In this document: piece by piece, positions 9,464-45,378 of the stretch
Layout: each line of letters begins with the position of its first letter
Position numbering within the stretch: position 1 is the first letter of the stretch
Source of the DNA: Paludibacteraceae bacterium
GTDB taxonomy: Bacteria; Bacteroidota; Bacteroidia; Bacteroidales; Paludibacteraceae
Direction of reading: 5' to 3'
Assembly: GCA_017560605.1 (NCBI GenBank)
Contig: JAFZEQ010000069.1
Location: 1-45,618, forward strand
DNA length: 45,618 nt
Position numbers and translations under genes: made by a program
Notes under the pieces: model-generated
Databases searched by the model: none
What the model saw: only the letters and a program-made list of their open reading frames with translations
What the model was told of the DNA's origin: nothing

Positions 9464-9508
9464 ACTTCAAAACTTCTGAACTTCAAAACTTCTGAACTTC
9501 TGAACAAT
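9464..9508 (+). repeat. 8-bp-period array (AACTTCTG/AACTTCAA)
   Basis: Between DUF6048 and transketolase the words AACTTCAA and AACTTCTG alternate in steps of 8 bp, five to six units. No promoter is visible in the 67-bp gap, so tkt may be read through from upstream. Confidence 0.75.
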
Positions 9509-9530
9509 AACAAAATACAAACATACAATC

Positions 9531-11540
9531 ATGAACTCAAAACAATTAATGTCAAAAGCGGCAGATAATATTCGCATCCTTGCTGCCGCTATGGTAGAAA
9601 AAGCTAAGAGTGGTCACCCAGGTGGCTCTATGAGTGGCGCTGACTTCGTACAAGTGCTCTACTCTGAGTTCCTCATCCACGATCCAGAAAACCCATGCTG
9701 GGAGGCGCGCGACCGTTTCTTCCTTGATCCTGGTCACATGTCACCTATGCTATATGCACAACTCTGCATGACTGGTCACTTCACCATGGACGAACTCAAG
9801 CAACTCCGCCAATGGGGTAGTGTAACTCCTGGTCACCCAGAGCGCAATGTGGAGCGTGGTATCGAGAATACCTCTGGTCCTTTGGGACAAGGCCATACTT
9901 TCGCTGTAGGTGCGGCTATCGCGGCTAAATGGTTCAATGCTCGTTATGGCGAGGTGCACAACCCAACAATATATGCATTCATCTCCGATGGTGGTATCCA
10001 AGAGGAGATCAGTCAAGGTGCAGGTCGTATGGCAGGTCACCTCAAACTCGACAACCTCATTATGTACTACGACTCTAACGAGATTCAACTCTCAACCTCT
10101 TGCAACGAGGTGTCTTCTGAGAACGTAGCTATGAAGTACGAGGCATGGGGCTGGTATGTACAAGACATCGATGGTCATGATCCAGAGGCTATCCGTCAAG
10201 CTATCATCAATGCACAAAACGAAAAGAATCGTCCTTCGCTCATCATCGGTCATACTTCTATGGGTAAAGGTTGTGTAAGTGCTGAAGGCGAGAGCTGGGA
10301 GGGCAAGACCTCTACCCATGGTCAACCACTCAGCAAGTCTGGTGCAAGCTTCGAGGCAACTGTTAAGAACCTCGGCGGCGATCCAGAAAATCCATTCCAA
10401 ATCTTCCCTGATGTACAAGAACTCTTCGATAAACGTGCTGAGGAACTTCGTGAGATAACCAACCAACGCTATGCTGTTTACCACGAGTGGAAAGAGGCTA
10501 ACCCATTGGCAGCAAACGAGTACGAGACCTTTATGAGTGGCGAGACTCCTTGTCTTGACTGGAGCCTTCTCCAACAAAAAGATAATGTGGCTACTCGTAC
10601 TGCTTCTGCTTCTGCTCTCGCGTTCCTTTCTGAGCATGTAGGCAACATGATCGTATCTTCTGCCGATCTCTGCAATTCAGATAAGACCGACGGTTTCCTC
10701 AAACATACTCATGTTATCACAGCGGATGACTTTACAGGTCGCTTCCTTCAATCTGGTGTGAGCGAGCTCACTATGGCTTGTGTATGCATCGGTATGGCGT
10801 TGCATGGTGGTATCATTCCTGCTTGTGGAACTTTCTTTGTGTTCTCTGATTATATGAAACCAGCTATCCGTATGGCTGCTCTCATGGAGATTCAAATGAT
10901 GTTTGTTTGGAGTCACGATGCTTTCCGTGTAGGTGAGGATGGTCCTACCCACGAGCCTGTAGAGCAAGAGGCGCAAATTCGTCTCATGGAGAAACTCCAC
11001 AACCACTCTGGTCGCCCAAGTGTAATGGTGCTCCGTCCTGCTGATGCAGAAGAGACTACTGCAGCTTGGAAGATGGCTATGGAGAATGTATATACTCCTA
11101 CTGCTCTTATCCTCTCTCGTCAAGATGTAACAAGTGTGCCAAACACTTCAGAGGCTGGTGTTAAGAAGGGTGCGTATATCGTAAGCAAAGATGAGAACCC
11201 ACAAGTCGTTATGATTGCTTCTGGTAGTGAAGTTTCTACTCTTATGGCAGGTGCAGAACTCCTTCGTGCTGAGGGTGTTCGCCTCCAAATCGTGAGTGTT
11301 CCTTCTGAGGCTATCTTCCGTCAACAAGATAAGGCTTACCAAGCAGAAGTGTTGCCACAAGGTGTTGCACGCTTTGGTCTTACCGCAGGTCTACCATGTA
11401 ACCTCGAGGGGCTTGTGGGCGAGCACGGTACCGTATGGGGACTCAACTCCTTCGGTTTCTCTGCTCCATACAAGGTGCTTGACGAGAAACTCGGCTTCAC
11501 CGCTCAAAACGTTTACGAACAAGTAAAAGCGTTGCTTTAA
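9531..11540 (+). CDS. tkt: Transketolase
   Basis: 669 aa, the usual length. It moves two-carbon units between sugar phosphates in the non-oxidative pentose phosphate pathway, using thiamine diphosphate. Visible landmarks: the N-terminal AKSGHPGGSMSGAD, the substrate and cofactor histidines (GHMSPMLYA, NTSGPLGQGHTFAVGA), the ThDP/metal motif SDGGIQEEISQGAGRMAGHL ending in YYDSNEIQL, the pyrimidine-binding acidic region FLQSGVSELTMACVCIGMAL, and HDAFRVGEDGPTHEPVEQ. The codon use is strongly biased (GGT, CGT, CTC), as expected of a highly expressed gene. Confidence 0.95.
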   Translation: MNSKQLMSKAADNIRILAAAMVEKAKSGHPGGSMSGADFVQVLYSEFLIHDPENPCWEARDRFFLDPGHMSPMLYAQLCMTGHFTMDELKQLRQWGSVTPGHPERNVERGIENTSGPLGQGHTFAVGAAIAAKWFNARYGEVHNPTIYAFISDGGIQEEISQGAGRMAGHLKLDNLIMYYDSNEIQLSTSCNEVSSENVAMKYEAWGWYVQDIDGHDPEAIRQAIINAQNEKNRPSLIIGHTSMGKGCVSAEGESWEGKTSTHGQPLSKSGASFEATVKNLGGDPENPFQIFPDVQELFDKRAEELREITNQRYAVYHEWKEANPLAANEYETFMSGETPCLDWSLLQQKDNVATRTASASALAFLSEHVGNMIVSSADLCNSDKTDGFLKHTHVITADDFTGRFLQSGVSELTMACVCIGMALHGGIIPACGTFFVFSDYMKPAIRMAALMEIQMMFVWSHDAFRVGEDGPTHEPVEQEAQIRLMEKLHNHSGRPSVMVLRPADAEETTAAWKMAMENVYTPTALILSRQDVTSVPNTSEAGVKKGAYIVSKDENPQVVMIASGSEVSTLMAGAELLRAEGVRLQIVSVPSEAIFRQQDKAYQAEVLPQGVARFGLTAGLPCNLEGLVGEHGTVWGLNSFGFSAPYKVLDEKLGFTAQNVYEQVKALL

Positions 11541-11580
11541 GGTTCAATATGGTTCAATGTGGTTCAGTATAGTTCAACAT
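11541..11580 (+). repeat. 10-bp-period array GGTTCAATAT, four units (left of IVS-type gene)
   Basis: GGTTCAATAT, GGTTCAATGT, GGTTCAGTAT and AGTTCAACAT follow the tkt stop directly. The complement, TTGAAC-based 10-mers, forms the array on the other side of the next gene. Confidence 0.8.
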
Positions 11581-11591
11581 TGTTTGCATAG

Positions 11592-14961: not shown

Positions 14962-15486
14962 TTAGGAGTTATTTTTGTTGAGCTTCTTTAACTCCTCCAG
15001 GATTTGTCGGTTGAGCGCATTGTTCTCTTTGAGCGAAGTTGCCATATTGGCAAATACCATTATTGGAGCAGGGATTAATATCGCAGGCACAATTGGAATC
15101 CAGCATGTTTCTTCTGCACCAATACCAACGAGTACAAAACATGCAATAAAACCGCCAATGAAAAAAATCCAACCTACTATTTTAAGTATCGTTTCCCATC
15201 CTCTGGATACATCTACATCGTTGTTCTCCTCCTCGATGTTGTTCTCGACGTTTATATCAGTGACTGTCCCTTCTTCGCTTCTCTCTAAATTCATATTAGG
15301 GTCTTTCCCTTCAAAATACTCTCCTGTGTTGGAGTAAAAATATCTATAGCCTGTTTCTTTTGATTTTAAGCAAAATTCATAAGGCGCGTGGGCAAGGCTA
15401 TTTCCAGGATTATACATATATAAAATTAGTCCATTTTTTGCTATGAATATATCTCCATTCTTAGCGTCCTTCAAAGATATTGCCAT
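14962..15486 (-). CDS. Membrane protein of unknown function (174 aa)
   Basis: I do not recognise the family. From ATG 15486 the first 70 residues look like a small beta domain (SLKDAKNGDIFIAKNGLILYMY, YRYFYSNTGEYFEG). A long acidic linker (EENNDVDV) follows, then two membrane helices (about residues 103-120 and 125-145; WIFFIGGFIACFVLVGIG, IVPAILIPAPIMVFAN) and a charged C-terminal helix (NRQILEELKKLNKN). A GTG at 15531 would add 15 residues but begins 16 nt after murI. It follows murI on the same strand and may be co-transcribed. Function unknown. Confidence 0.65.
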   Translation of the reverse strand: MAISLKDAKNGDIFIAKNGLILYMYNPGNSLAHAPYEFCLKSKETGYRYFYSNTGEYFEGKDPNMNLERSEEGTVTDINVENNIEEENNDVDVSRGWETILKIVGWIFFIGGFIACFVLVGIGAEETCWIPIVPAILIPAPIMVFANMATSLKENNALNRQILEELKKLNKNNS

Positions 15487-15546
15487 AAATTTAAGATTAC
15501 GTTTGCCTACTCTTTGTTGGATTTTCGGCACACTCCGTATAATTTG

Positions 15547-16374
15547 TTATAATTCTATCTTTGTTGCTTCAATCTTCTCTTCTAAGAACATAGATGCTGA
15601 CTCCGAGAATTTTCTGGCTGACTCTGTTGTTAAGAATGCACATTTGCCACTAGCGTCTTTTTGTACGCGTTCCGCAATATCAGTATGGCGTTTTAGATAG
15701 TCTTCTAATCTTTCGGCTACTATCGCTCCTTGAGCTATGACTTTTACTTCGCCTTTGGATATCGTCTGTTTGGCTAGGAAGGCTTCTATCTTGTCTTGCA
15801 ATAGTGGGTAGTGTGTGCAACCTAGTATGATGCAGTCTATTTGTGGGTCTTTCTCTAATAATTCAGTCAAATATTTCTCTATAAAATAGTCTGCTCCGCC
15901 ATGTAAGTGCTCACCCGATTCTATCAGAGGTACCCACATTGGGCACGCTTGTTGGGTAATGTTAAGCTTCGGATTTTGCTTTTGTAGTTCAATTACATAG
16001 CTCTCTGATGCTACTGTACCTGGGGTAGCTAGCACTCCTATATGATTCGTGCGCGTGAGCGCGGGAACGATTTCTGCTGTTGGCCTGATCACACCTAGTA
16101 CTCGCAACCTACTAGCGTCTATATCGTTCTGCTGAATTGTACGCAAAGCTTTTGCGCTGGCTGTGTTACAAGCTAAAATAATCAATTCGCAACCTTGCTC
16201 GTGCAGATAGTTTACGGCTTGTAGTGTGTACTCGTATATCACATCAAATGAGCGTGTTCCATACGGAGCACGAGCATTATCACCCAAGTACAAATAGTCG
16301 TATTCAGGTAACTGCTGGCGGATGTGATTTAGTATTGTTAGACCGCCGTAACCGCTGTCAAAAATGCCTATCAT
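15547..16374 (-). CDS. murI: Glutamate racemase
   Basis: 275 aa. Makes D-glutamate for peptidoglycan precursors. N-terminal GIFDSGYGGLTIL carries the catalytic-site Asp/Ser. The two catalytic cysteines are in ILACNTAS (C69) and GCTHYPLL (C186). APYGTRS is also conserved. The gene is divergent from dnaN; the two promoters are back to back (16426-16492). In many Bacteroidales murI closes the uppS-bamA-ompH cluster; here it is about 4 kb away from it and in the opposite orientation. Confidence 0.95.
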   Translation of the reverse strand: MIGIFDSGYGGLTILNHIRQQLPEYDYLYLGDNARAPYGTRSFDVIYEYTLQAVNYLHEQGCELIILACNTASAKALRTIQQNDIDASRLRVLGVIRPTAEIVPALTRTNHIGVLATPGTVASESYVIELQKQNPKLNITQQACPMWVPLIESGEHLHGGADYFIEKYLTELLEKDPQIDCIILGCTHYPLLQDKIEAFLAKQTISKGEVKVIAQGAIVAERLEDYLKRHTDIAERVQKDASGKCAFLTTESARKFSESASMFLEEKIEATKIEL

Positions 16375-17689: not shown

Positions 17690-18481
17690 ATGAAATTAAA
17701 ACTTACTCGCCCGTTGGTCTTCTTTGATTTGGAGACCACGGGACTAAATATTGCATCCGATAGGATTGTAGAGTTGAGTTATTACAAGGTCTTTCCTGAT
17801 GGTCAAGCCGAGGGGAAGACCTTGCGTCTCAAACCAACATATATGATGCTGGGTCAAGAGGTTCAGATGCCTATTTCTCCAGAGGCTAGTGCTGTGCATG
17901 GCATCTACGATGAGGATTTGGTAGACAAACCTACATTCAAGGATGTAGCTGCTAGCCTAGCAGCTGTTCTAGATGGAACTGATTTGGCAGGTTATAACTC
18001 CAATCACTTTGATCTTCCACTTTTGGCTGAAGAGTTTATGCGTGCTGGTGTTGATGTCGATCTCAAGTCTAAACGTATGATAGATGTCTTTACCATCTTC
18101 CAGCGTCAGGAGCCTCGCTCTTTGGTGGCGGCATACAAGTTTTATTGTGGCAAGGACCTAACTAATGCCCATGCTGCGGATGCTGACACCATGGCTACAT
18201 ACGAGGTGCTCAAGGCGCAACTAGAACGTTACGAACTACCAGATGATGTCGACGGTTTGGCCGATTTCACCACAGGAACTGTGCGTTTTGCTGATTTTGC
18301 AGGTCGTATTGCTTATGATGCAGATGGGGTGGAGATCTTCAATTTTGGTAAGTACAAGGGCCAGCGTGTAGCTGATGTCTTCCGTCGTGATCTTGGCTAT
18401 TATGGCTGGATTCAAAATGGTGATTTTCCACAATATACCAAAGCTGTCTTTACCCGTGTATACATGTCCCTCCGTCGATAA
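17690..18481 (+). CDS. DnaQ-like 3'-5' exonuclease with C-terminal DUF3820
   Basis: 263 aa. Residues 9-170 form a DEDDh exonuclease: exo I VFFDLETTGLN, exo II GYNSNHFDLPLLAEEF, exo III HAADADTMAT. The C-terminal 60 residues (FNFGKYKGQRVADVFRRDLGYYGWIQNGDFPQ) match the short DUF3820 domain often fused to such nucleases. Probably a DNA polymerase III epsilon-type proofreading or repair nuclease; its place directly after dnaN fits. The paralogue problem is real: several DnaQ-like proteins occur per genome, so I give no symbol. Confidence 0.88.
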   Translation: MKLKLTRPLVFFDLETTGLNIASDRIVELSYYKVFPDGQAEGKTLRLKPTYMMLGQEVQMPISPEASAVHGIYDEDLVDKPTFKDVAASLAAVLDGTDLAGYNSNHFDLPLLAEEFMRAGVDVDLKSKRMIDVFTIFQRQEPRSLVAAYKFYCGKDLTNAHAADADTMATYEVLKAQLERYELPDDVDGLADFTTGTVRFADFAGRIAYDADGVEIFNFGKYKGQRVADVFRRDLGYYGWIQNGDFPQYTKAVFTRVYMSLRR

Positions 18482-18546
18482 CTTCTAAACTCCTGAACTT
18501 CTAAACTCCTGAACTTCTGAACTCCTGAACTTCTGAACTCTTGAGC
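18482..18546 (+). repeat. 8-bp-period array AACTTCTA/AACTCCTG, eight units
   Basis: A strictly 8-bp-stepped run (AACTTCTA, AACTCCTG, AACTTCTA, AACTCCTG, AACTTCTG, AACTCCTG, AACTTCTG, AACTCTTG) fills the gap between the exonuclease stop and the RNase Z start. Confidence 0.85.
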
Positions 18547-25878: not shown

Positions 25879-25952
25879 GGCGATGTTAAAGAGTTTCACG
25901 CACCTTTGGTGCTGTTTCACGCTCCGCTGTTTCAGCCCTGAAACATTGAAAC
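25879..25952 (+). repeat. 74-bp dispersed repeat, copy 1, followed by an 8-bp array to 26003
   Basis: Starts GGCGATGTTAAAGAGTTTCA, contains the hairpin GCACCtttGGTGC (25900-25912) and ends TTGAAAC. A near-identical copy lies at 29038-29111. It runs into an 8-bp-period array of AAACATTG/AAACTTTT words that reaches the ompH start. Confidence 0.85.
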
Positions 25953-26003
25953 TTTTAAACATTTAAACATTGAAACTTTTAAACATTGAAACTTTTAAAA
26001 CAC

Positions 26004-26522: not shown

Positions 26523-26715
26523 TTGCCTTGGGCAATTCAATGATTTAATGATTCAACGCGCAAAGCGCTATTTAAATTCTTTGAATAATTAACTTTTTGA
26601 ATCCTTGAATAATTAAATTTTTGAATTTTTGAATCCTTAAATTTTTAAATTTTTGAATTCTTAAATTTTTGAATTTTTAAATTCTTAAATCTTTGAATAT
26701 TAACTAAAAAACAAT
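26521..26715 (+). repeat. 8-bp-period TTGAATTT/TTAAATTT array with two micro-hairpins
   Basis: Between the two ompH genes. It opens with AATTGCCttgGGCAATT (26521-26537, overlapping the stop codon), then GCGCaaaGCGC (26558-26568), then at least ten 8-mers alternating TTGAATTT, TTGAATCC, TTAAATTT and TTAAATTC. No gene is present. Confidence 0.85.
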
Positions 26716-27239: not shown

Positions 27240-27480
27240 CTATCTTTAAAGTGTTCTAACCACAGCGTTGCTGTTGTTCTAATCTAGAACCGTTAGTAAA
27301 ATTTGCTTGCAAATTAATCGTTCGAGCCTTTAGGCGAGATAAGAACTTTTGAACAGCCCTTTAGGGCGCTTAGAACTTTTAGAACAGCACCTCTAGTGCG
27401 CTTAGAACCTTTAGAACAGCCCTTTAGGGCGCTTAGAACTTTTAGACCAGCACCTCCGGTGCGCTTCAACCCTTAAAATC
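27240..27480 (+). repeat. Compound array: AGAACTTTT words plus micro-hairpins (31-bp superunits)
   Basis: From 27342 to 27466 four units of about 31 bp repeat the plan AGAACTTTT - AGAACA - hairpin - GCTT, where the hairpin alternates between GCCCTttAGGGC and GCACCtccGGTGC (or GCACctctaGTGC). Upstream are CAGCgttGCTG, AATTTGCttGCAAATT and TCGagcctttaggCGA; downstream AAAATCcacGATTTT. No gene fits before 27494. Confidence 0.85.
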
Positions 27481-27619: not shown

Positions 27620-27652
27620 ATACTCATAATTCTTAATTCAAAATTCATAATT

Positions 27653-31813: not shown

Positions 31814-31912
31814 TTTAAATTTTTGAATCCTTTAAATCTTTAAATTTTTGAATTCTTAAATCCTTTAAATCTTTTGAATCCTTAAATCTTTGAATTTTTG
31901 AATTCTTGAAAT
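31814..31912 (+). repeat. 8-bp-period TTAAATTT/TTGAATCC array
   Basis: About twelve 8-9 bp words (TTAAATTT, TTGAATCC, TTAAATCT, TTGAATTC). Same type as 26580-26700. The whole stretch 31668-33298 holds no protein gene. Confidence 0.8.
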
Positions 31913-31962
31913 CTTTTTTTTGCAAACTTTAAGTAGCAAATTTTATTTTTCTATATTTATTC

Positions 31963-32501: not shown

Positions 32502-32670
32502 CATAGGAACTTCATAGGAACCTCATAGGAACTTCATAGGAACTTCATAGGGACTTCGCTGAGAGATAACCGAGAGACGACCGAGAGATAACCGAGAGAT
32601 AACCGAGAGATGACCGAAAGATAAGCATAGGATAAGCAATGGATCGTTAATGGATGGTTAAGGTATAGTT
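32502..32670 (+). repeat. Long 11-bp-period drifting array (15 units)
   Basis: Five CATAGGAACTT-type 11-mers (32502-32556), a 4-nt break, then ten 11-mers from 32561 that change gradually from GAGAGATAACC through GAAAGATAAGC and AATGGATCGTT to AAGGTATAGTT. The period stays at 11 while the sequence drifts. The core TTCATAGG is shared with 3420-3463. Confidence 0.85.
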
Positions 32671-32805
32671 AACGCTCGCCTTCACTTTAGAACATTACAA
32701 CGCGCTTAGCGCATGTAACTTTGAAATAAGAGCCGCAGGCTCGTGAAACTTTGAAACATTGCAACACGCTTTAGCGCATGTAACGTCGCCTTGGCGACCA
32801 AAAAG
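32630..32805 (+). repeat. 176-bp direct repeat, left copy
   Basis: Begins in the end of the 11-bp array (GGATAAGCAATGGATCGTTA), then carries micro-hairpins GCGCttaGCGC, GAGCCgcaGGCTC (32730-32742), GCGCTaaaGCGTG-like and GTCGCCttGGCGAC. The right copy is 34012-34188, about 90% identical. Confidence 0.9.
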
Positions 32806-33508: not shown

Positions 33509-33512
33509 TGCT

Positions 33513-33785
33513 ATGTACAGTGTACAGATGACCAGAGCGTTTCGCAAGAACACGGAGTTGTGCAAGAAACGCGGATACGATATGCGACTTTTGAGTGAGG
33601 CGATTCACCTATTGGAAGCCAATGGGTGTCTTCCTGCTTCATACCATCCGCACAAGTTGTCCGGAAATTACGAAGGAACCTGGGAAGCTCATCTTAAAGG
33701 TGATTGGTTGCTATTGTGGAGACAAAATGATGTTGAGTTAGTATTGTTGTTCACAGGTACTGGTACTCATTCAGATATTTTCTAA
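33513..33785 (+). CDS. YafQ-family mRNA interferase toxin
   Basis: 90 aa, the usual length. RelE-superfamily fold: YSVQMTRAFRKNTELCKKRG, then HPHKLSGNYEGTWEAHLKGDWLLLWRQ and VLLFTGTGTHSDIF. The HKLSGNY, AH-x-x-x-DW and GTHSDIF histidines and aspartate correspond to the catalytic set of YafQ, so it is probably an active ribosome-dependent mRNA endonuclease. Co-transcribed with its antitoxin; the pair lies between 176-bp direct repeats. Confidence 0.88.
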   Translation: MYSVQMTRAFRKNTELCKKRGYDMRLLSEAIHLLEANGCLPASYHPHKLSGNYEGTWEAHLKGDWLLLWRQNDVELVLLFTGTGTHSDIF

Positions 33786-34007: not shown

Positions 34008-34011
34008 TTGA

Positions 34012-34188
34012 GGATAAGCAATGGATCGTTAAGGGATAGTTAAGGTATAGTTAACGCTCGCCTTTACTTTAGAACATAACAACGCGCTTAGTGCATGTAA
34101 CTTTGAAACAAGAGCCTCAGGCTCGTGAAACTTTGAAATATTGCAACGCGCTTCAGCGCATACAACGTCGCCTTGGCGACCCAAAAAG
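34012..34188 (+). repeat. 176-bp direct repeat, right copy
   Basis: Same order of elements as 32630-32805. Changes in hairpins partly keep pairing (GAGCCtcaGGCTC). The copy starts exactly with GGATAAGCAATGGATCGTTA. Confidence 0.9.
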
Positions 34189-34207: not shown

Positions 34208-34235
34208 GCCAATAGCCAATAGCCTATAGCCCAAA
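34208..34235 (+). repeat. Heptamer array before the giant gene
   Basis: GCCAATA, GCCAATA, GCCTATA, GCCCAAA, ending 7 bp before the ATG. Same heptamer as in murF. Confidence 0.85.
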
Positions 34236-37200: not shown

Positions 37201-40200
37201 GAGATATTGATGTAAAGATTGTAGCCGAAGAAGATCCTTGCTACGGCTTTGCTATGTCAACTGTAATATCTACCTCTACAACCAATTCTATCACATTAAC
37301 TTGGACTGAGGTCGCAGGAGCTACTGGTTATAAGGTACGCCTTGATAAGGGAGAATTTACCACCGCAACAGGATTGACTCACACCTTTGAAGGTCTTTCT
37401 CCTAAAACAACTTACAACTGGGAAGTACAAGCGGTGAGCGACATTTGTGAAGCTAGTAAAACTGGTTCTACCGCTACACAAAAAGAAACCTTTACCGTTT
37501 CGTGGAGCGTAAATGGTACTGTCACTTCTACAGAACCAGTGGTAGATGGTGAGTCTATCCAAAATACTCCATTAGACCCTGATGACGAAACTCTTGAGGA
37601 TTGCGGAGCAAATAAATTCATGGGTTGGAGCGAAAAATCAGCTGGTTCTACACCTCAAAATGCAGCTTATTATGATGACCTCTGCTCCGCAGCACAAATG
37701 AAATCAAAACATAGCAGCGTTACTGGTGACAAAACTTTATACGCTGTGTTTGCGACTAGCAAAGAAACTCCTGGACAATCAGTAGAAGCAAGTTTGTCAT
37801 TTGCAAGTACTGCACAGCGAGATAGTCAAACTTCAAGCAAACAAGTATGGTCAAATGAGGGAATTACTTTTACGAATAATAAGGGAAGTTCTACTACAGA
37901 TGTGGCTAACTATAGTAACCCTGTACGTTTGTATAAAAATTCAGAAATAATTGTTGAACATACTTCAGGTGAAATTACTAAAATAGTGTTTGATTGCAAT
38001 AGCTCAGCTTACGCTACAGCACTTAAGAACTCAATAGGTACTCCTAATAGTAATACAACGGTAACTGCATCATCCGATAAAGTAACAGTTACTTTTGCCA
38101 ATGCAGTAGCATCCTTCTCTGCAAAATTAACAAGTGATCAAGTGCGTATGGATGCTCTTACGGTAACGGCAGGTGGAGGAACTATCACTACTTACTCGAA
38201 CTACGTTACCAACTGTTGTGCTACTCCTGTTCCAACAAATGGTAGTTATACCAGTCCAAGTGGAACTTCTGTTACACTCACATGGGATGGTGAATCTACA
38301 CAATACCATATCACTGGTAATGGTTTAGATGATTATTCAAAAGAAGAAAGCTATACAATTACAGGTCTCACCGAGTGTGACGAATATACTTTCTATGTTT
38401 CTGCATATCCAGAAGGTGGTTGTGAGTCTGAGGCAATACCTATCACCGCTCAACCATTCAGCGGCGCGAAGACTGTGACCTTTAATTACAATGGTAATGG
38501 TCAAGAGAACACAACATCTTCAACTAGTTGTGGCAATACATCTATTACTTTGCCTACTCCTTCTTGGACTGATTATCGTTTCATGGGTTGGTACACCGCT
38601 GCTAATGGTGGAGATAAAGTTAATGAAAACCCATATACACCAACCTCTGACATTACCCTCTATGCGCATTGGGAAAAAGAATACAATGTGACATACAATG
38701 CAAATAGTGGTTCTACCACATGTGCTGGCGGTGCTTATATCGCAGGTGAAACAGTTACTGTATGTACAACTAATCCTAGCAAAACTGGTCATACTTTTAT
38801 AGGTTGGACTTATTCTCCAAGTGTGACTATCACAGATGGTAAGTTTGTAATGCCAGCAAGCGATGTGACTATTACAGCACAATGGCAAGTCGAATCATAT
38901 ACTGTCACTTGGAATCCAAATGGTGGTAATTGGGGCGGTAGTGCAGCAAGTATTGAAGAGACCTATGAGTATGGTGCAACAATCGTTCAACCTGCTGCAC
39001 CTCAACGAGATGATTATCGCTTCACGGGTTGGAGTCCTGCGGTATCTGCAACAATGCCAGCTGGTAATAAAACCTATACTGCTCAATGGAAACAAAATTA
39101 TACCATTACTTTCCATGATGGAGATGATGTTACTCCTTGGACACAAACCAAAGACGCAGAGTCAATCAATCTTACTGAGTATGTAGGAACATTGGCTTGT
39201 GATGATTACCAATTTGCAGGATGGTCAACCGCCGATACAAAATACAATGATGAGACTGCAAACATCACTACATGGGTAACTGGCAATTATACCCCAACTG
39301 CTAATATAGATCTCTATGCTGTATATACTAAAGGTGCTGTTACCAACGACTTTACACTCAACTGCGCAGGTGGTGTGTATGAGATATGGGTAAATAATTC
39401 AGCCAAAAATCATATGGCAGGTCATGTAAATAGTACACCTAAGTTATATACCAAAGAATGGTGGAATGGTGGTTGTTCTTCATGTAACGGAACAGATGGT
39501 ACACCGTTTACTATAACAAAGATTGCAGACAATACATATTCTATACAGAATGCGGATGGAGAATATATAGCGAAGCAATCTTCGGGTACTCATCCATATG
39601 TAGAATCTACTTGGGCTAATCAAGATCGATATAAATGGACTATTTCAGAAGGAACCAATGGCTCATGGCGTTTTGTAAACAAAGCTGCTACAGATTATGC
39701 ATTAGTTTACTATAACGATTATTTTGACTTATGCAAGGCAACAAGCGTAACCAATGGTAGCACAAGTTACTACGATTTGGAACTCTCTCCTGCAGCATCA
39801 AATGTATATCAATCTAATCCAAATTGTGGACCTTATTATATTAGATTCGAAACTCATGGCGGAGAATTTATTCAAGGTGAATATGCATACGGAGAAGAGC
39901 AGACTGGTTTGACTGAAACTACCTACTCTAAATTCCCAGCTGCTGAATTAGAAGGATACACCTTCGCTGGTTGGAAAGATGGTAGTCCTTTAGATGAAGA
40001 AATAACGGCTGACAATCCAGCTGATGGTCCATACTTGAAACAAGCAGATGAAGACTTGATCGTTTCTTCTAACAAAACCTATCATGCGGTATATTATTAC
40101 TACGATGAAGAGGAAGATATCGATTTTTCTAAAGAGTTCATAACCAGTATCTATGTAGATATTAATGAAATGCAATATTTCCTTTCGGGAACTCCAAGTT

Positions 40201-43200
40201 CAGATGGCGGTAGATTATCTGCTACAACTGATTGTGGATCTGTTTCAGAGGTGACCATTACTCCAGGAACAGGTGCCAATGCGGGAAAATATGCAATCAA
40301 GATTAATGGAGTATCAATAGCTCCTAGAGCAGACGAGACGGATATTGTAGGTGGAAGTACAGCTTGGTGGACCATCGAAGAAAGATCACCTGGATCTGGC
40401 GAATATAAGATTTCAGGACAAGATAAAACGAACATCGTTTATATTGGTGGAGGCTTTGGACACTACAAATATAATCAAGGTAGTGACTATGGAGCAAACT
40501 ACTATTATCCTCATTTTGGTATTTGTCGCCAGCACCACTGGGTATCTTTCCCAACATTAAAACCATCTATAAACCTCTCAGGTGATGTATATGTAACAGC
40601 TACTAATGCTCGTGGCGTTATGGCAACATCCACATTGAAGGTTTCTGCGAAGCAGTTGAACGCTAACGAGCAAGTGAACATTACATCAAATAGTAACGAT
40701 GTTTATTTCTCTGCTGACCGCACAGTCAATTTCGTTAAAGCAAATAAGCCAACTAATACATTGACTATTACAGCAAGTCCAAGTGGTGTTATCGAGCAAG
40801 AAATCTACGTACACTACAAACCAAGCATAGAAGGCAATGGTACACCTGCAAGTGTGGTGGTATCAGCTAATCTTGCAACACCTAACCCATCTGTCACAGA
40901 TGATCAAACTATCTATGTGCGCAACTTGCCAGCTAAGTTTGTGATTGCAACAAAAGTAGGTGCAACATGGTATGCGCTTCCTGCAAATATGAATGGTGCA
41001 ACTAATCCAGAAGGTGTTGTGATTGATGTTGATGAAACTAACATGACTGCCATCGCAACAAATACCACCACTTATACACTTTGGCCAGTAAAAACAACAG
41101 CTACAGAAAATGACCGTTACACCAATGTTACAGGTGCTGCCTATGGCGACCGTGTGCGTTTTGCTGCGGTGAATAATAACAATGGTTTGTGGGCAAACAA
41201 CAATAATAATGGTTCTGCTATTAGAAACTATGCAAAGATTGAAGCATTAGGTGCTGATGCTTTAGCCGCTTACGAGTGGAAAATTTCAACAACCATAGTC
41301 AATGGCAATTGGCAATATACCTTGCAAACAGACCAACCAAATAACCAAAAATACTTGCGTTATTGGGTCGGTGCTACTGGTGCTCCTAAATGGGGTACAT
41401 ATGCTGCGGGTAATGACCAACTCTATTTCTTGCCTGTTACAGAGACAGAACCATTCGACTATAAAGTTGTAGAGTGGTATCCAACCAAGATGCTCATTCA
41501 AACAGACGCTGCTATCGCTAATCCAACAGCGAAGATTGGTGATGAACAATTTAATGATATTACTTGCAACAACAAGGGTAGCAAACTCTACGAGATTGCA
41601 GGTCTTCCTCTGGAAAGTAATCCAACCAAAGTCTTGACAATCAAGTTTAGCGATGGCGGAAATAATTACACCAATGCAACGGCCATTCCTGTGATTATTT
41701 CACAATCTGCAACGACTGTGTCTAGTGCACCATTTACTACTCTCACTAAGGATGTATATAACTATGCTGACTTGGTTGTACGCGATGGAGCGACACTGAC
41801 TATTAATGGTGGAACACACGCAGAGAACACTTTCTTCAATGTGACTATCTATCCTACATCTAAGATCTCTGTTCCTAGTGATAAAAAACTCACCGTTCAT
41901 AGTCTTACCTTCTTTGGCGGTATCGATGAGATATACAATGGTTCTACTTACACCTTAAATAAATATGGTGTACCAGAACTATCGCTAAAAGGCACTTTGA
42001 AGAAGAGTATATCTACCATTGACTACCTCATGCGTGTGGACTCTAAGCAAATGTATTCTCTCACTGTTCCATATGATGTGCAATTGGCTGACATCAAGTA
42101 TTGGGATGGAACAAACATTGTATTGGGAGATGAACTTTGGGTGTCTGCTTACGATGGCGCATCACGCGCCCAAAACCAAGGAAATGGTAAGAACTGGATT
42201 TATGAAACTGATTTTAATCCTGCTACCCTAAAGGCAGGTGTGGGTTATACTATCTCTGCGGAATTGCAGAGTGGTGTAGGAAACGAGTATTCTATCCTCC
42301 GTATGCCAATGATGAGCAATGTTGAGAACGACGCTACCGAAAGAGAGAAAAAGGTATCTGTAACGGCACACGGAATCGATGCAAATATCACCGACAACCA
42401 CAAAGGTTGGAACCTTGTGGGTAACCCATATATGACATCTATCTCTGGTGGCGAAGCAGATAGCAAACTTGTACTCGGTTATCTCAAAGAGACAGGCACT
42501 GGTCCTTGGGAATGGGTAGAGAAGGATTATCGATATGTGACTATCCCTGCAGATAATGGAAAAGACTATCATCAACAGAAATTCACAGAGGCTGTTCTTC
42601 CTCCATTTAAAAACTTCTTCGTTCAAATCGGTACAACAGGAGACTTGCAGTTCGGTCTTGGCACACGCCAAAGTATGCCTGCTCGTTCTACTCAAGCGGC
42701 AATTGAGAAAGAAGTGGAGTTTGAAATCCTTATGAGCAATGATGCACGACAAGATAATACTGGTTTGCTTATTTCTGAAGAATACAGTCCAGCATACGAA
42801 ATCAATGCTGACCTTGAGAAGATGACTGGAACGATGTCAGTTTACACCATCTATGGTGGATATAAATTGGCATACAACGCACTTAGTCCTATCAATGCAA
42901 GCGAGTGGATTCCTATGGGATATATCGCTCCTGCTGCGGGAGAATATACATTCCGTTTGGATGATGTCGAAAAGATAGTGGAACAAGTAGAGCATGTTTA
43001 TGTTATCGACTATGATGCAAATAATATTGTCGACCTTATGACTGATGAATACAAGTTCACAACTAATAAGGAACAAAATGACAATCGTTTCGCGATCAAT
43101 GTGGTTCTCATTCAAGACAAGGATAATACGACAACGGGCTTGGATATTATCAATGGAAATAATACTGCTCCAATCAAGTTTATTTACCATGATAAGATCT

Positions 43201-43265
43201 ATATTAAGAGTGGAGAAGTTATCTATGATGGAACTGGTAAACAAGTTACAAATATCAATAAGTAA
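34242..43265 (+). CDS. Giant secreted multidomain protein with InlB B-repeats and Fn3-like domains (3007 aa)
   Basis: Signal segment at residues 17-35 (LAMVLTVLFTVGVGTMWGA). Three jelly-roll-like domains with NNNN-rich starts (e.g. 37-195, 360-510, 1185-1320). Listeria-Bacteroides (InlB B) repeats of the form TYDANGG...GYAFTGWNTKADGSG...TLYAQW, at about 517-750 and 1407-1700. Fibronectin III-like units near 1005-1070 (ITLTWTEVAGATGYKV) and 1325-1400. A Trp/Asn-rich beta-trefoil-like part near 1705-1860, and a long C-terminal beta region (LVVRDGATLTINGG, GWNLVGNPYMTSI). The end IYIKSGEVIYDGTGKQVTNI resembles short type IX sorting tails of Bacteroidales. Probably exported to the surface as an adhesin or matrix protein. 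Codon use is less biased than in housekeeping genes. No enzymatic motif was seen. Confidence 0.85.
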   Translation: MKNFNSFFNQLTAMPKRLAMVLTVLFTVGVGTMWGAEEVYKETIFNSSNNSEKISSYSNSWSNTTNSFKINITNANNNNNGWTYIKMGSKNNASTGTIITASSIDKKITKVSLNIGAITSSDVTSIKLYKSTNNSTWVEIGSFSKNTNWQNVVISDANQGTNLYYKIEAVCLKASSNGPLQINGLRFYIEDTPVQSYTVNWTINPTAGGTLSAPSGNSTTVNPNAAYTYGSPAYTVTSGSATVSKSGNTFTATPTANSTIQINMVEKQTHTITWMSNGVQYGEKQIVVDGQAIGILPDTPPACSSKYSTFVGWYTLSSGTETTPSKSPQGVKVTESTIPNDDATYYAVWADGSSEGGEELKTTLDFSSNVDWKIPSGSSNKTVAENQYSNGTYTIKLAGSTNNGYYYNSNQVLLGKNGAYLELPAFSFKVSKIVSTTPTATVSGAVTWNVFTGETPVSSPLTGCTSGGTFEIDKDYQTEGTIYTIKVTNANNLQIKQLEIYESVSGATGYITTCTTQTSVTLNPNGGEIANSDWTLENGVYKLTTNDESITLPEITRAGYTFDGWATSAGGSKAHDNGATITLNGTPVTLYAIWTPITYTITYELDGGTNHASNPANYTIETEAITLQDPNKTNHNFVGWYKESTFATQVTQIEKGSTGNITLYAKWEEIPTNCTVTYDANGGEGTITDATKYTNGATVTVLGNFGKFTNEGYAFTGWNTKADGSGDSYKHNDQFTITTNTTLYAQWCSAHWVLVTNTSEIEDDTRIIIAAKDYNVALSTTQNDNNRGQATITKKYNTVTFGADVQTLSAVGPVNNNFALYSPGPLSIGYLYAASSSSNQLKTKTTPDNNCYWSIGISETVASIYAQGDKTHNQIKYNHQQSGQLFSCYESTNTTMSAVAIYKEVCVQDQYNVNEPKLTNATAANTNPTTVASNATSLTLNYSANAGYLLPETITVKMGGVALSSTDDYTWNKETGDLTISVTGFYGDIDVKIVAEEDPCYGFAMSTVISTSTTNSITLTWTEVAGATGYKVRLDKGEFTTATGLTHTFEGLSPKTTYNWEVQAVSDICEASKTGSTATQKETFTVSWSVNGTVTSTEPVVDGESIQNTPLDPDDETLEDCGANKFMGWSEKSAGSTPQNAAYYDDLCSAAQMKSKHSSVTGDKTLYAVFATSKETPGQSVEASLSFASTAQRDSQTSSKQVWSNEGITFTNNKGSSTTDVANYSNPVRLYKNSEIIVEHTSGEITKIVFDCNSSAYATALKNSIGTPNSNTTVTASSDKVTVTFANAVASFSAKLTSDQVRMDALTVTAGGGTITTYSNYVTNCCATPVPTNGSYTSPSGTSVTLTWDGESTQYHITGNGLDDYSKEESYTITGLTECDEYTFYVSAYPEGGCESEAIPITAQPFSGAKTVTFNYNGNGQENTTSSTSCGNTSITLPTPSWTDYRFMGWYTAANGGDKVNENPYTPTSDITLYAHWEKEYNVTYNANSGSTTCAGGAYIAGETVTVCTTNPSKTGHTFIGWTYSPSVTITDGKFVMPASDVTITAQWQVESYTVTWNPNGGNWGGSAASIEETYEYGATIVQPAAPQRDDYRFTGWSPAVSATMPAGNKTYTAQWKQNYTITFHDGDDVTPWTQTKDAESINLTEYVGTLACDDYQFAGWSTADTKYNDETANITTWVTGNYTPTANIDLYAVYTKGAVTNDFTLNCAGGVYEIWVNNSAKNHMAGHVNSTPKLYTKEWWNGGCSSCNGTDGTPFTITKIADNTYSIQNADGEYIAKQSSGTHPYVESTWANQDRYKWTISEGTNGSWRFVNKAATDYALVYYNDYFDLCKATSVTNGSTSYYDLELSPAASNVYQSNPNCGPYYIRFETHGGEFIQGEYAYGEEQTGLTETTYSKFPAAELEGYTFAGWKDGSPLDEEITADNPADGPYLKQADEDLIVSSNKTYHAVYYYYDEEEDIDFSKEFITSIYVDINEMQYFLSGTPSSDGGRLSATTDCGSVSEVTITPGTGANAGKYAIKINGVSIAPRADETDIVGGSTAWWTIEERSPGSGEYKISGQDKTNIVYIGGGFGHYKYNQGSDYGANYYYPHFGICRQHHWVSFPTLKPSINLSGDVYVTATNARGVMATSTLKVSAKQLNANEQVNITSNSNDVYFSADRTVNFVKANKPTNTLTITASPSGVIEQEIYVHYKPSIEGNGTPASVVVSANLATPNPSVTDDQTIYVRNLPAKFVIATKVGATWYALPANMNGATNPEGVVIDVDETNMTAIATNTTTYTLWPVKTTATENDRYTNVTGAAYGDRVRFAAVNNNNGLWANNNNNGSAIRNYAKIEALGADALAAYEWKISTTIVNGNWQYTLQTDQPNNQKYLRYWVGATGAPKWGTYAAGNDQLYFLPVTETEPFDYKVVEWYPTKMLIQTDAAIANPTAKIGDEQFNDITCNNKGSKLYEIAGLPLESNPTKVLTIKFSDGGNNYTNATAIPVIISQSATTVSSAPFTTLTKDVYNYADLVVRDGATLTINGGTHAENTFFNVTIYPTSKISVPSDKKLTVHSLTFFGGIDEIYNGSTYTLNKYGVPELSLKGTLKKSISTIDYLMRVDSKQMYSLTVPYDVQLADIKYWDGTNIVLGDELWVSAYDGASRAQNQGNGKNWIYETDFNPATLKAGVGYTISAELQSGVGNEYSILRMPMMSNVENDATEREKKVSVTAHGIDANITDNHKGWNLVGNPYMTSISGGEADSKLVLGYLKETGTGPWEWVEKDYRYVTIPADNGKDYHQQKFTEAVLPPFKNFFVQIGTTGDLQFGLGTRQSMPARSTQAAIEKEVEFEILMSNDARQDNTGLLISEEYSPAYEINADLEKMTGTMSVYTIYGGYKLAYNALSPINASEWIPMGYIAPAAGEYTFRLDDVEKIVEQVEHVYVIDYDANNIVDLMTDEYKFTTNKEQNDNRFAINVVLIQDKDNTTTGLDIINGNNTAPIKFIYHDKIYIKSGEVIYDGTGKQVTNINK

Positions 43266-43735: not shown

Positions 43736-43865
43736 AACCGTTCTATCGCGACAAAGTCGCTGTTCTAAAGGTGGGGGTGTTGGCTATGGGTTATTGGCGA
43801 TTGGAGTAATGAGAGTAATAAGACTAATAAGACTAATGGGGCCAATAAGACCAATTGGCCGAATT
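43736..43865 (+). repeat. Mixed array: GTTCTA/GCGAC hairpin, heptamers, 9-mers
   Basis: The 34-bp word around GCGACaaaGTCGC (43748-43760), flanked by GTTCTA, recurs exactly at 45345-45378. It is followed by heptamers GGCTATG/GGTTATT/GGCGATT (43782-43804) and 9-mers TAATAAGAC (43808-43865). Confidence 0.8.
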
Positions 43866-43875
43866 GGTAAAGTAT

Positions 43876-43906: not shown

Positions 43907-43976
43907 GTGGATAGAGAGATGGGATAAGGCGTGAGAAGCGTCGATAATGTGCCGAGGATGTCCCATGGATGTCTTT

Positions 43977-44105
43977 ATTTTTGTTCTATGCTTGCACTTT
44001 TCCTCAGAGTGGAACCTCTTCAGACGCTGCGCTCGGAGTACGTTATGTCACACTCCTTCGAATCGCGTGCAAGACAGGACATAGTTGGTGTTTCTTCCGC
44101 TTTCT
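43977..44105. repeat. About 125-bp direct repeat, left copy, overlapping the fic 3' end
   Basis: About 80-85% identical to 45420-45546. On the minus strand it covers the last 19 codons of fic plus its 3' untranslated region. Shared words include TTCTATGCTTGC, CTTTTCCTCAGA, GACGCTGCGCTCGGAGT and TAGTTGGTGTTTC. Confidence 0.85.
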
Positions 44106-45172
44106 CCCGTGTCGCATAAAATACCCTTGGCTACTAAATCTTGAATATCACGTAGAGCAGTTGCAGATGAACAATGCGCCATTTTTGCCCATTTGCTGGT
44201 GTTGAGTTTGCCTTCAAAGCCATCCCATAGACTGTTGATAATCTTAATTTGGCGTTCGTTGAGCGGCGTAGAAGCATGCTGCTGCCAGAATAGCGATTTT
44301 TGTAGCACGCGCTGTGTGTTGTGCATAGCCGTGGAAATCGCATCTCCCATTGTTTGTAAAAACCATGCCAACCATTGAGTAATATCTAATCCATGCTTGC
44401 CACTGTATTCCAAAATATCGTAATATGCTTTTTTGTTACGCAAGATTGCTGCCGACATACTATAAAAACGCATCGGCATTCTATCAGCACGAGCCAATAG
44501 CATGTCGGTAATCGTTCTAGTTAATCGACCATTGCCGTCGTCAAAAGGATGGATATTAACAAACCATAAATGAGCAATAGCAGCCTTCAATACAGGATCG
44601 ATAGCGCTTTCTTGGTTCACCCATTGCAGAAAACGCTCCATCTCTTGTGGTACATTCTTGGATTCTGGTGCTTGATAATGCACTACCTCTTTGCCCATTG
44701 CGCCTGACACTACCAACATAGGCTCACTACCTTGTCGCCAATTGGCTACTGTGATAGGTGTGATACCAGTTCTGCCTGTAGGAAAGAGAGCTGCATGCCA
44801 ATTAAATAGGCGCTCTGCAGTCAGAGGTGATGAAGCGTGTTGTACCGCATCCATTAGCACTTGCACCACTCCGTCAGTATAATGATCGGCCTCGGGCATA
44901 CCTGCGGTGTCTAAACCCAAATGCCTTGCTACTGACGAACGCACATGATTAGGATTAAGTAGCATCCCCTCGATTTCGGCATTGCGCAGTACGTCTTCAG
45001 TCATAACCTCCAACGCGTTACGATGCTGCGTGTCAAAACCTAGTCCGTTCATTAGACCAATCAGTTGACCTTGTTGCTCTCTAATACGTGCAAGCAAGGA
45101 GATGATGTTGCTATCATTCCAGCAGAAATGTGGCCATTGTTCGTATTGCCATATCCAGACAGGGTGTGCCAT
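44048..45172 (-). CDS. Fic-domain protein with N-terminal DUF4172-like region
   Basis: 374 aa. The N-terminal part (WIWQYEQWPHFCWND, LGFDTQHRNALEVMTEDVLRNAEIEG) is the DUF4172 type. The Fic core contains the active-site motif HPFDDGNGRLTR at residues 208-219, preceded by the target-docking flap region (WRQGSEPMLVVSGAMG). The C-terminus is a winged helix (KWAKMAHCSSATALRDIQDL, GRNTNYVL). Such enzymes transfer AMP or related groups to protein hydroxyls and are held inactive by a helix with motif S/T-x-x-x-E-G; here it is N65-AEI-E68-... with Asn in the Ser/Thr position. It has its own promoter and lies between direct repeats. Confidence 0.9.
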   Translation of the reverse strand: MAHPVWIWQYEQWPHFCWNDSNIISLLARIREQQGQLIGLMNGLGFDTQHRNALEVMTEDVLRNAEIEGMLLNPNHVRSSVARHLGLDTAGMPEADHYTDGVVQVLMDAVQHASSPLTAERLFNWHAALFPTGRTGITPITVANWRQGSEPMLVVSGAMGKEVVHYQAPESKNVPQEMERFLQWVNQESAIDPVLKAAIAHLWFVNIHPFDDGNGRLTRTITDMLLARADRMPMRFYSMSAAILRNKKAYYDILEYSGKHGLDITQWLAWFLQTMGDAISTAMHNTQRVLQKSLFWQQHASTPLNERQIKIINSLWDGFEGKLNTSKWAKMAHCSSATALRDIQDLVAKGILCDTGESGRNTNYVLSCTRFEGV

Positions 45173-45214
45173 AATCCAATCAGTTTATGAGGTGAATAGT
45201 TTTAATTTTCGATG

Positions 45215-45245
45215 CAAAGGTAGTGCTTTTTTATCAATTACGCAA
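45215..45245 (-). promoter_or_regulatory. Promoter of fic
   Basis: Minus strand: TTG 45245-45243, 20-bp spacer, TACCTTTG 45222-45215; leader about 37 nt. Confidence 0.8.
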
Positions 45246-45305
45246 GAAATGATGCGAAAAAGTGTGTTATTCGCTTCATTTTATGATGGGAATGGTAGGG
45301 GGAGT

Positions 45306-45378
45306 TGGAAAAGTTCTAAAAGTTCTAAAAGTTCTAGCCGTTCTAACCGTTCTATCGCGACAAAGTCGCTGTTCTAAA
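45306..45378 (+). repeat. 9-bp-period AGTTCTAAA array ending in the GCGAC hairpin word
   Basis: AAGTTCTAA repeated in 9-bp steps, then CCGTTCTAA and CCGTTCTAT, then GCGACaaaGTCGC. The last 34 bp are identical to 43736-43769. Confidence 0.85.

What the first reader, a model, noticed from the sequence alone, without database searches (positions are those of the whole stretch)
9464..45378. Locus-specific short-period drifting arrays fill the intergenic DNA
Many spacers carry a tandem array with its own fixed period and its own word: 8 bp (9464, 18482, 25940, 26580, 31814), 10 bp (11541, 11961), 11 bp (3420, 32502), 9 bp (43808, 45306), 7 bp (34208, 43782). The words are related (GAAC, GAAT, AAAC, TTCTA cores), yet each locus is internally homogeneous and differs from the next. 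Ordinary microsatellites do not keep such long periods while the sequence drifts, and ordinary REP elements are one sequence family. I know of no named family with this behaviour. This is the strongest candidate for an undescribed system in the window.
Basis: seen in the sequence. Interest (0 to 1): 0.75.

Follow-up and report, generated by a model that had tools for sequence, protein, structure and literature searches.

The report
Short tandem repeats between bacterial genes
The gaps between genes of this probable gut bacterium and its relatives hold many short tandem repeats: 7-10 letter units tend to lie against gene ends, 11-letter units further away, and the repeated word often changes from species to species; the kind of repeat is already known, the two-zone layout looks new.

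Summary
The arrays are real. The window (Bacteroidales, near Paludibacteraceae MAGs) holds 21 arrays of period 7-11 at TRF score 40 or more, against 1 in its shuffle. One listed array (7 bp at 43782) is not supported. Eighty relatives carry 368 in 1,555 kb. Density per 100 kb falls with kinship: 29.0 in the nearest genome, 15.1 in a genus sample, 8.4 family, 3.5 order and phylum, 0 in 50 kb of E. coli. Two corrections. Words are not purely locus-specific: they form genome-specific families, while the same spacer in another species often has another word. And there are two populations: periods 7-10 at gene ends, often starting with the gene's own stop codon in register; period 11 further away and over-represented in convergent and divergent spacers. 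Best reading: short minisatellites made and resized by slipped-strand duplication, kin to the heptamer repeats (STRR, TAACTGA) of cyanobacteria and Beggiatoaceae. MutS loss and REP/RAYT mobility were tested and do not explain it. Function is unshown; strain-level variation could not be tested.

The parts
3417..3468 (.). 11-bp array (GTTATTCTTAG, 4.6 units) in a spacer between gene calls on opposite strands (divergent)
   Evidence: lag-11 identity 0.80, shuffle max 0.58
9457..9505 (+). 8-bp array CTTCTRAA, 6.1 units; the upstream gene's TAA stop (9461-9463) lies in the first unit; next start at 9531
11541..11577 (.). 10-bp array GGTTCAATAT, directly after the transketolase stop codon
11981..12047 (.). 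10-bp array TGAACAACTT, 6.7 units, interrupted by a short GC-rich hairpin; just before the leucyl-tRNA synthetase gene
18480..18544 (+). 8-bp array (16-bp higher-order unit AACTTCTAAACTCCTG) filling the spacer from the exonuclease stop codon to the next start
25939..25999 (+). 8-bp array TGAAACAT between bamA and the first skp-like gene
26571..26698 (+). 8-bp array TTGAATTT, 15.9 units, with 24- and 32-bp higher-order periods, between the two skp-like genes
27327..27466 (.). 31/63-bp composite array: hairpins (GCCCTTTAGGGC and others) alternating with the word TTAGAAC
27624..27652 (+). 7-bp array TCATAAT ending at the MFS gene's start codon; about four units here and in L008, one in L006
29097..29128 (+). 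8-bp array TTGAAACA before the next called start codon
29351..29484 (.). 7/14/21-bp array GCCCATAGCCAATA, inside the called frame 29165-30586 (start codon not verified)
31814..31916 (+). 8-bp array (25-bp higher-order) of the same TTGAAT/TTAAAT family as 26571-26698
32502..32624 (.). two adjoining 11-bp arrays, CATAGGAACTT then GAGAGATAACC; L001 has both words in the same order with about two units fewer of each
32638..32672 (.). 11-bp array GGATNGTTAAG, first copy (inside repeated block 32629-32804)
34023..34054 (.). 11-bp array GGATNGTTAAG, second copy (inside repeated block 34011-34186)
34208..34231 (+). 7-bp array GCCAATA just before the start codon of the 3007-aa reading frame
43807..43855 (.). 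9-bp array TAATAAGAC
45309..45354 (.). 9-bp array AAAAGTTCT followed by a 5-bp-stem hairpin

Best explanation
These are short-unit minisatellites of spacer DNA, dense in one Bacteroidales lineage. Short stretches of 7-11 bp are duplicated in tandem by slipped-strand or template-switch replication, then grow and shrink in whole units. They survive where they break no gene: directly after a stop codon, before a start codon, or in the middle of a long spacer. An array at a gene end often has the gene's own stop codon as part of its first unit, so later units carry a stop too. Words and whole blocks also spread within a genome, which gives genome-specific word families; the carrier of that spread is unknown. 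The spacer has two zones. Nearer than about 100 bp to a gene end the 7-10-bp arrays dominate, A-rich and, when they touch a stop codon, with stops on the sense strand. Further in, and relatively more in convergent and divergent spacers, the unit is 11 bp, about one turn of DNA. Shown here: the excess, the zones, the in-register stop codons, the word families and whole-unit copy differences between species. Inferred: slippage as the cause, and that most arrays have no function as such.
For: Excess over chance: 372 intergenic arrays of all periods in 81 loci against 24, 16 and 15 in three shuffles, with a sharp period window (7:112, 8:32, 9:23, 10:27, 11:96; 5 and 6: one each; 12:5). Zones (overlapping stretches removed: 157 loci, 1,288 spacers, 229 kb, 395 arrays): bases in 7-10-bp arrays fall from 7.9% at 10-20 bp from a gene end to 1.5% at 150-250 bp; bases in 11-bp arrays rise from 0.5% (0-10 bp) to 5.0% (150-250 bp), then 2.4% beyond 250. 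The opposite trends recur in G001, G006 and the rest taken apart. Without TRF, in the loci outside G001 and G006, short codirectional spacers peak at lags 7/14/21 and convergent plus divergent spacers at lags 11/22/33 (14.4, 12.1, 8.1 times expectation). Local birth: in 129 arrays of period 7-10 touching an upstream stop, a stop codon recurs exactly one and two units on in 72 of 258 places (28%), against 5-10% at shifts of 1-3 bases. Resizing: of 59 same-word array pairs in orthologous spacers of different species, 27 differ by 0.9 unit or more and 21 by less than 0.5; both adjoining 11-bp arrays at 32502-32624 have about two fewer units in L001. Block growth: 16-, 24- and 32-bp higher-order periods. 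Dispersal: words at least 0.8 alike are 4 to 7.5 times commoner within than between genomes for periods 7, 8, 9 and 11. MutS is present in 16 of 16 genomes, which fits loops too long for mismatch repair (the loop-length limit is from a passage of PMC4060949).
Against: Slippage between neighbours should make adjacent units most alike; in 52 long arrays unit identity is nearly flat with distance. Slippage alone does not explain the lack of units of 5-6 bp, the second peak at 11 bp, or the different zones of 7-10 and 11 bp. It also does not explain the same word at many loci of one genome. For period 10 the within-genome excess is absent (2.3% against 2.2%). In G006 short codirectional spacers also peak at lags 11 and 22 (6.9 and 9.3 times), and its convergent/divergent excess of 11-bp arrays is not significant (p 0.35). 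Sense-strand A-richness is also seen in 11-bp arrays (58 against 28) and could reflect function or strand-biased mutation. Related species are not independent samples. No strain or read data were available, so no slippage event was seen directly.
Confidence: 0.58

Rival explanations
1. The 7-10-bp arrays are regulatory sites in mRNA: repeats between stop and start codons bind a protein or ribosome and tune translation, as proposed for TAACTGA repeats.
For: They lie against start and stop codons (141 codirectional cases: median 4 nt from the stop and 20 nt to the start). Near starts they are A-rich on the sense strand (67 against 31 arrays), with sense TGAA/TAAA words. The same spacer keeps an array in several species although the word changes.
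Against: Words differ between loci and species, so no single binding site exists. The arrays are not less structured than shuffles (mean z -0.43 for 106 near starts). In 17 of 20 orthologous spacer groups half or fewer of the species have an array (e.g. 29 of 76, 23 of 73).
Confidence: 0.15
2. The 11-bp arrays are DNA elements read by helical phase (protein wrapping, bending or insulation between transcription units), so the period is conserved and the word is free.
For: The period is close to one helical turn. Enriched in convergent and divergent spacers (45 of 136 against 43 of 259 for 7-10 bp; Fisher p 3e-4) and in codirectional spacers with a promoter-like TAnnTTTG box (35 of 80 against 35 of 164; p 5e-4). 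Several lie between a terminator-like hairpin and a promoter-like box. In one spacer (skp1>skp2) 21 of 37 arrays are 11-mers, with about a dozen different words.
Against: The pooled test that orthologous spacers keep the period class while the word differs is not significant (0.743 against null mean 0.696, null maximum 0.812). In G006 the convergent/divergent excess (p 0.35) and the promoter excess (p 0.08) are not significant. My terminator scan gave no contrast (29 upstream against 25 downstream of 99 arrays). No partner protein is known.
Confidence: 0.14
3. They are small mobile repeats of the REP/RAYT or MITE type that jump between spacers.
For: Word families are dispersed over many stretches (23 arrays of the AAAACTTTT family on 16 stretches of G001). 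Block copies exist within the window (93% and 87%). Hairpin cassettes recur.
Against: No Y1 transposase (PF01797) match in G001, G003, G006 or G007; 8 of 16 genomes searched had a match, several weak and partial. In the three G001 families printed, members share the words and sometimes similar flanking words, with no fixed outer boundary that I could see.
Confidence: 0.08
4. Chance or base composition of AT-rich spacers.
For: Arrays are AT-rich, about 70% A+T for periods 7-10.
Against: Dinucleotide shuffles of the same spacers give about one twentieth of the arrays (15-24 against 372; G001 1 against 152).
Confidence: 0.01

Closest known systems
TAACTGA direct repeats of Beggiatoaceae, Cyanobacteria and some Bacteroidetes (MacGregor 2015, PMC4679880; abstract and sections 3, 8, 10, 23 read)
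   Same: Short-unit direct repeats in spacers, in the Maribeggiatoa genome mostly just upstream of start codons and sense-oriented; indels in 7-nt steps between two Cyanothece strains; present in five Bacteroidetes including Paludibacter.
   Different: That study followed one fixed heptamer, whose near-variants are rare as repeats in the main genome. Here periods run 7-11, each genome has many words, and a separate 11-bp population lies away from genes.
STRR heptamers of heterocystous cyanobacteria (Mazel 1990, recalled; a Calothrix report of three heptamers is cited in PMC4692102, passages read)
   Same: Several heptamer words arrayed in one genome.
   Different: Heptamers; no described 11-bp class or gene-end zoning that I know of (recall).
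Long simple sequence repeats, units 5-11 bp (Mrazek 2007, known here only as summarised in PMC4679880 and PMC4692102; later survey PMC4060949, passages read)
   Same: Heptamers most abundant in most genomes; 6-11-bp units strongly over-represented between genes in a few genomes; polymerase slippage proposed.
   Different: Position within the spacer by period was not in the passages read.
G-rich heptamers of Xanthomonas and Nostoc (PMC4692102; passages read)
   Same: Degenerate heptamer arrays between genes, variable between close relatives.
   Different: G-quadruplex words of one type; the 7-10-bp words here are mostly A-rich.
REP/RAYT and REPIN elements (PMC3116915 and PMC3733652, start of abstract in search listings only)
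   Same: Dispersed intergenic families in one genome, some with hairpins.
   Different: A palindromic sequence family with a cognate Y1 transposase (recalled); no such transposase in G001.

Membership tests
STRR / TAACTGA-type spacer repeats | tandem direct repeats of a short unit in intergenic DNA beyond chance | tested here: met
STRR / TAACTGA-type spacer repeats | concentration next to start codons or gene ends | tested here: met
   met for periods 7-10, not for period 11
STRR / TAACTGA-type spacer repeats | heptamer unit | tested here: inconclusive
   period 7 is the commonest (112 of 372 intergenic arrays) but 11 (96) and 8-10 (82) are common
STRR / TAACTGA-type spacer repeats | one favoured word per genome (TAACTGA type) | tested here: not met
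   152 arrays of G001 fall into 69 word families
REP/RAYT elements | cognate Y1 (RAYT-like) transposase in the genome | tested here: not met
   no PF01797 match in G001, G003, G006, G007; 8 of 16 genomes matched
Phase-variable microsatellites | unit of 1-5 bp in a coding or promoter contingency locus | tested here: not met
   periods 5 and 6: one intergenic array each
Phase-variable microsatellites | copy-number variation within a strain or population | not testable with these tools
   one genome per species, no reads
Minisatellites made by slippage | whole-unit copy change between relatives | tested here: met
   27 of 59 same-word orthologous pairs differ by 0.9 unit or more; example
Minisatellites made by slippage | neighbouring units more alike than distant ones | tested here: not met
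   nearly flat identity with distance in 52 arrays; dimer and trimer higher-order units exist
Mismatch-repair-deficient hypermutator | loss of MutS | tested here: not met
   MutS_I present in 16 of 16 genomes; MutL was not tested

The most novel reading that the evidence does not exclude
The unit length of tandem duplications in this lineage is set by what the DNA is doing. Transcribed gene-end DNA generates 7-10-bp units (perhaps tied to the transcription bubble or RNA:DNA hybrid), and untranscribed spacer DNA generates or selects 11-bp, one-turn units that act as word-free, helically phased boundary elements between transcription units.
Probability: 0.14. Interest if true: 0.78.

Novelty: new variant of a known kind. 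Interest (0 to 1): 0.46.

Why it matters
Bacterial spacer repeats with units of 6-11 bp are known but little studied. A lineage with roughly 4 to 13 times the array density of the order and phylum samples (15.1-46.0 against 3.5 per 100 kb), and with the period sorted by position, gives a natural experiment on how such arrays arise. If the two zones reflect two machineries, or a helical-phase function, then period alone would report the state of the DNA. The arrays also change spacer length between species and can enter signal-peptide coding, so they affect gene prediction and comparative genomics of gut Bacteroidales.

Tried and rejected
Chance and composition: rejected by shuffles. MutS loss: rejected, 16 of 16 genomes have MutS. 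REP/RAYT: Y1 transposase not found in G001, G003, G006, G007. 'Arrays keep the leader unstructured': not supported, arrays are on average slightly more structured than shuffles. 'Same spacer keeps the period while the word changes' as a general rule: not significant when pooled, though the single spacer skp1>skp2 looks that way. 'Transcribed against untranscribed' rests on a crude promoter motif and terminator scan; the terminator scan gave no clear contrast (29 upstream against 25 downstream of 99 11-bp arrays), and 7-10-bp arrays in spacers of 150-900 bp also often have a promoter-like box downstream (35 of 101, antisense control 12; for 11 bp 34 of 58, control 11). A stop-preserving A/G bias inside units was too small to use (8 against 2 near gene ends, 1 against 5 elsewhere). 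Shared motifs by period exist weakly across species; I draw nothing from them. First gene calls missed genes and were replaced. All gene calls are my own ORF scoring, not curated. Gene calls for the 20 phylum stretches and E. coli were poor (about half called intergenic), so the lag spectra of their spacers rest on only 8.7 kb and 1.5 kb, and densities are compared on whole sequence. Searches counted overlapping DNA: the genus stretches L194, L199, L200, L210 repeat parts of L067, L065, L061, L075, and searches also took in L101-L130 (L101 overlaps L001; L102-L130 are other Bacteroidota). I repeated their tests without these, and the report uses; the conclusions did not change. Dropped rows: periods outside 7-11 in most tests; spacers under 25 or over 900 bp; arrays with indels or under 3.5 units; groups of fewer than 8 species.

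Papers: nine of ten searches used, all in the open PMC library. That the two-zone layout looks new rests on these searches and the passages named; subscription papers are not covered. Elhai 2008 on small dispersed repeats (recalled) was not listed by searches with its terms.
Full report
What was checked. Tandem Repeats Finder on the window gave 59 rows at score 30 or more. At score 40 or more there are 21 arrays of period 7-11, against 2.2 per 100 kb (1 array) in a dinucleotide shuffle. No whole genome is held for the window. By BamA the nearest records are Paludibacteraceae and Bacteroidales MAGs, many titled as from ruminant, horse or pig guts; the nearest is L001 (RGIG7379, 93% identity).

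How general it is. In the 80 BamA loci plus the window, 372 intergenic arrays of all periods were found, against 24, 16 and 15 in three shuffles of the same spacers. The periods are sharply bounded: 7 (112), 8 (32), 9 (23), 10 (27), 11 (96), with one array each at 5 and 6 and five at 12. Ten of the 81 loci had no intergenic array of period 6-14. Arrays of period 7-11 per 100 kb of whole sequence: window 46.0; G001, the genome of L001, 29.0 (188 in 648 kb); G006, the genome of L041, 16.5 (69 in 419 kb); 80 BamA loci 23.7 (368 in 1,555 kb); 20 stretches of 19 genomes of the genus 15.1 (54); 20 of the family 8.4 (33); 20 of the order 3.5 (14); 20 of the phylum 3.5 (14); E. coli K-12 none in 50 kb. 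Shuffles give 0.0-2.2. The wider samples are drawn from the rank as a whole and may include members of the narrower one; four genus stretches overlap BamA loci. The one locus titled Paludibacter sp. (L057) has a single array and no lag excess. These are samples of at most 20-23 kb per genome, except that about a third of G001 and a fifth of G006 were held.

Two populations. Arrays of 7-10 bp sit against genes. In 141 codirectional cases the median distance is 4 nt from the stop codon and 20 nt to the start codon; for 59 arrays of 11 bp the medians are 120 and 127. Over 1,288 spacers (229 kb, overlaps removed) the share of bases in 7-10-bp arrays falls from 5.7-7.9% within 40 bp of a gene end to 1.5% beyond 150 bp, while the share in 11-bp arrays rises from 0.5% to 5.0% at 150-250 bp and is 2.4% beyond. 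The opposite gradients appear in G001 alone, G006 alone and the remaining loci. Arrays of 11 bp are over-represented in convergent and divergent spacers (45 of 136 against 43 of 259 for 7-10 bp, Fisher p 3e-4); the subsets give p 0.037 (G001), 0.35 (G006) and 0.013 (rest). A measure that does not use the repeat finder agrees in part. In the loci other than G001 and G006, 5-mer matches peak at lags 7, 14 and 21 (10.2, 7.7, 6.6 times expectation) in short codirectional spacers and at lags 11, 22 and 33 (14.4, 12.1, 8.1) in convergent and divergent spacers. G001 shows 7 and 9 in the first and 11 in the second. G006 shows 11 in both (6.9 and 7.7). On whole sequence, the ratio of lags 7, 8, 10, 11 to control lags is 1.24-1.88 for the window and seven array-bearing loci, 0.70-1.22 for 20 other Bacteroidota stretches, 0.93 for E. 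coli and 1.0 for L057. Codirectional spacers with a promoter-like TAnnTTTG box near the start codon favour 11-bp arrays (35 of 80 against 35 of 164, p 5e-4; subsets 0.006, 0.08, 0.03), and several G001 examples lie between a terminator-like hairpin and such a box. I infer, but have not shown, that the 11-bp arrays are mostly untranscribed; the terminator scan gave no clear contrast.

Words. The words are not free from locus to locus: within a genome the same word recurs at many loci. In G001, 152 arrays make 69 families, 49 of them singletons; the largest is a 9-bp AAAACTTTT family with 23 arrays on 16 stretches. Pairs at least 0.8 alike are commoner within than between genomes for periods 7 (10.1% against 2.5%), 8 (6.1% against 1.3%), 9 (27% against 3.6%) and 11 (3.9% against 0.9%), but not 10 (2.3% against 2.2%). 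Across species the same spacer often holds another word and another period: before the MFS gene, about four units of TCATAAT in the window and in L008, a single unit in L006, and 10-bp arrays in L001, L003 and L005. The skp1>skp2 spacer holds 21 arrays of 11 bp among 37 arrays (32 of 77 species), with about a dozen words. A pooled test of whether orthologous spacers keep the 11 against 7-10 class when words differ was not significant (701 of 944 pairs, 0.743, null mean 0.696, null maximum 0.812).

Birth and growth. In 129 arrays of period 7-10 that touch an upstream stop codon, a stop codon recurs in exact register one and two units on in 72 of 258 places (28%); shifts of one to three bases give 5-10%. 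The window shows this at 9457 and 18480. So the array often includes the end of the gene as its first unit, as expected if it grew there; a dispersed word that contains a stop and happened to be kept there would look alike. Arrays touching a stop have more stops on the sense than on the antisense strand (52 against 24, p 0.0018); arrays of 11 bp do not (34 against 37). Of 59 same-word pairs in orthologous spacers, 27 differ by 0.9 unit or more and 21 by less than 0.5. At 32502-32624 two adjoining 11-bp words occur in the same order in L001, each with about two units fewer. Higher-order periods of 16, 24 and 32 bp suggest that blocks of units are duplicated. Against simple neighbour slippage, unit identity is nearly flat with distance in 52 arrays of 6 or more units (0.825 at 1 unit, 0.805 at 8).

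What it is not. MutS is present in all 16 genomes tested. A Y1 transposase was not found in G001, G003, G006 and G007, so RAYT-driven REP mobility is an unlikely account of G001 (a draft genome). The arrays are not less structured as RNA than their shuffles.

A second module. In the window and in G001, and hardly in the other loci searched, arrays are interrupted by 13-base hairpins with five-pair stems and three-base loops, set between copies of the local word. In G001, 24 candidates have all five pairs, five have four, and the shuffle has one with five; five different perfect stems occur; the window has six perfect ones, L002-L012 one, L013-L080 one, G006 none. Stems differ while pairing holds, so pairing is maintained or made by templated copying. 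In G001 hairpins with an AAC(A) flank lie mostly in the sense direction of codirectional genes (32 against 9).

Place among known things. The nearest published case is the TAACTGA repeat (PMC4679880): spacer repeats, in Maribeggiatoa mostly just before start codons, also in Cyanobacteria and five Bacteroidetes including Paludibacter, with 7-nt-step differences between two Cyanothece strains. That study follows one heptamer. Surveys of 5-11-bp repeats (Mrazek 2007 as summarised in PMC4679880; PMC4060949, passages) note heptamer abundance, strong over-representation between genes in a few genomes, and propose polymerase slippage. I therefore file this as a new variant of a known kind: same kind of repeat, with many words per genome, periods 7-11, high density in one lineage, and a position-dependent period.

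Noticed in passing
window 32629-32804 and 34011-34186, with 33299-33785 between them: Two 176-bp composite repeat blocks (93% identical) flank a two-gene unit whose second gene is a YafQ-type toxin of a toxin-antitoxin system (PF15738, E 4e-26) and whose first, a 69-aa frame without Pfam match, is presumably the antitoxin.
   Followed up: partly
window near 19351, 25912, 29071, 34111, 43760, 45369; G001 loci: 13-base hairpin cassettes (five-pair stem, three-base loop, varying stems) set between copies of the local word, frequent in the window and G001 and rare in the other loci searched.
   Followed up: partly
L036, L038, L049, L056, L078 (skp1 start): A heptamer array (AATTATC/AATTCTC) lies 7 nt inside the predicted gene, in the leader-peptide region of the skp-like gene, so arrays can enter coding sequence.
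   Followed up: no
window 34242-43265: A 3007-aa frame with Listeria-Bacteroides repeat, InlB B-repeat-like and fibronectin III domains, probably a surface protein.
   Followed up: no
window 15504-15538 (-): Rfam DUF805b RNA (RF02914), 39.7 bits against a gathering score of 35.6, just downstream of an Asp/Glu racemase-domain gene (15547-16374 -) and over the start of a minus-strand frame 14962-15531 that has no Pfam match.
   Followed up: partly
window 44048-45172 (-): Fic/DOC family protein with DUF4172.
   Followed up: no
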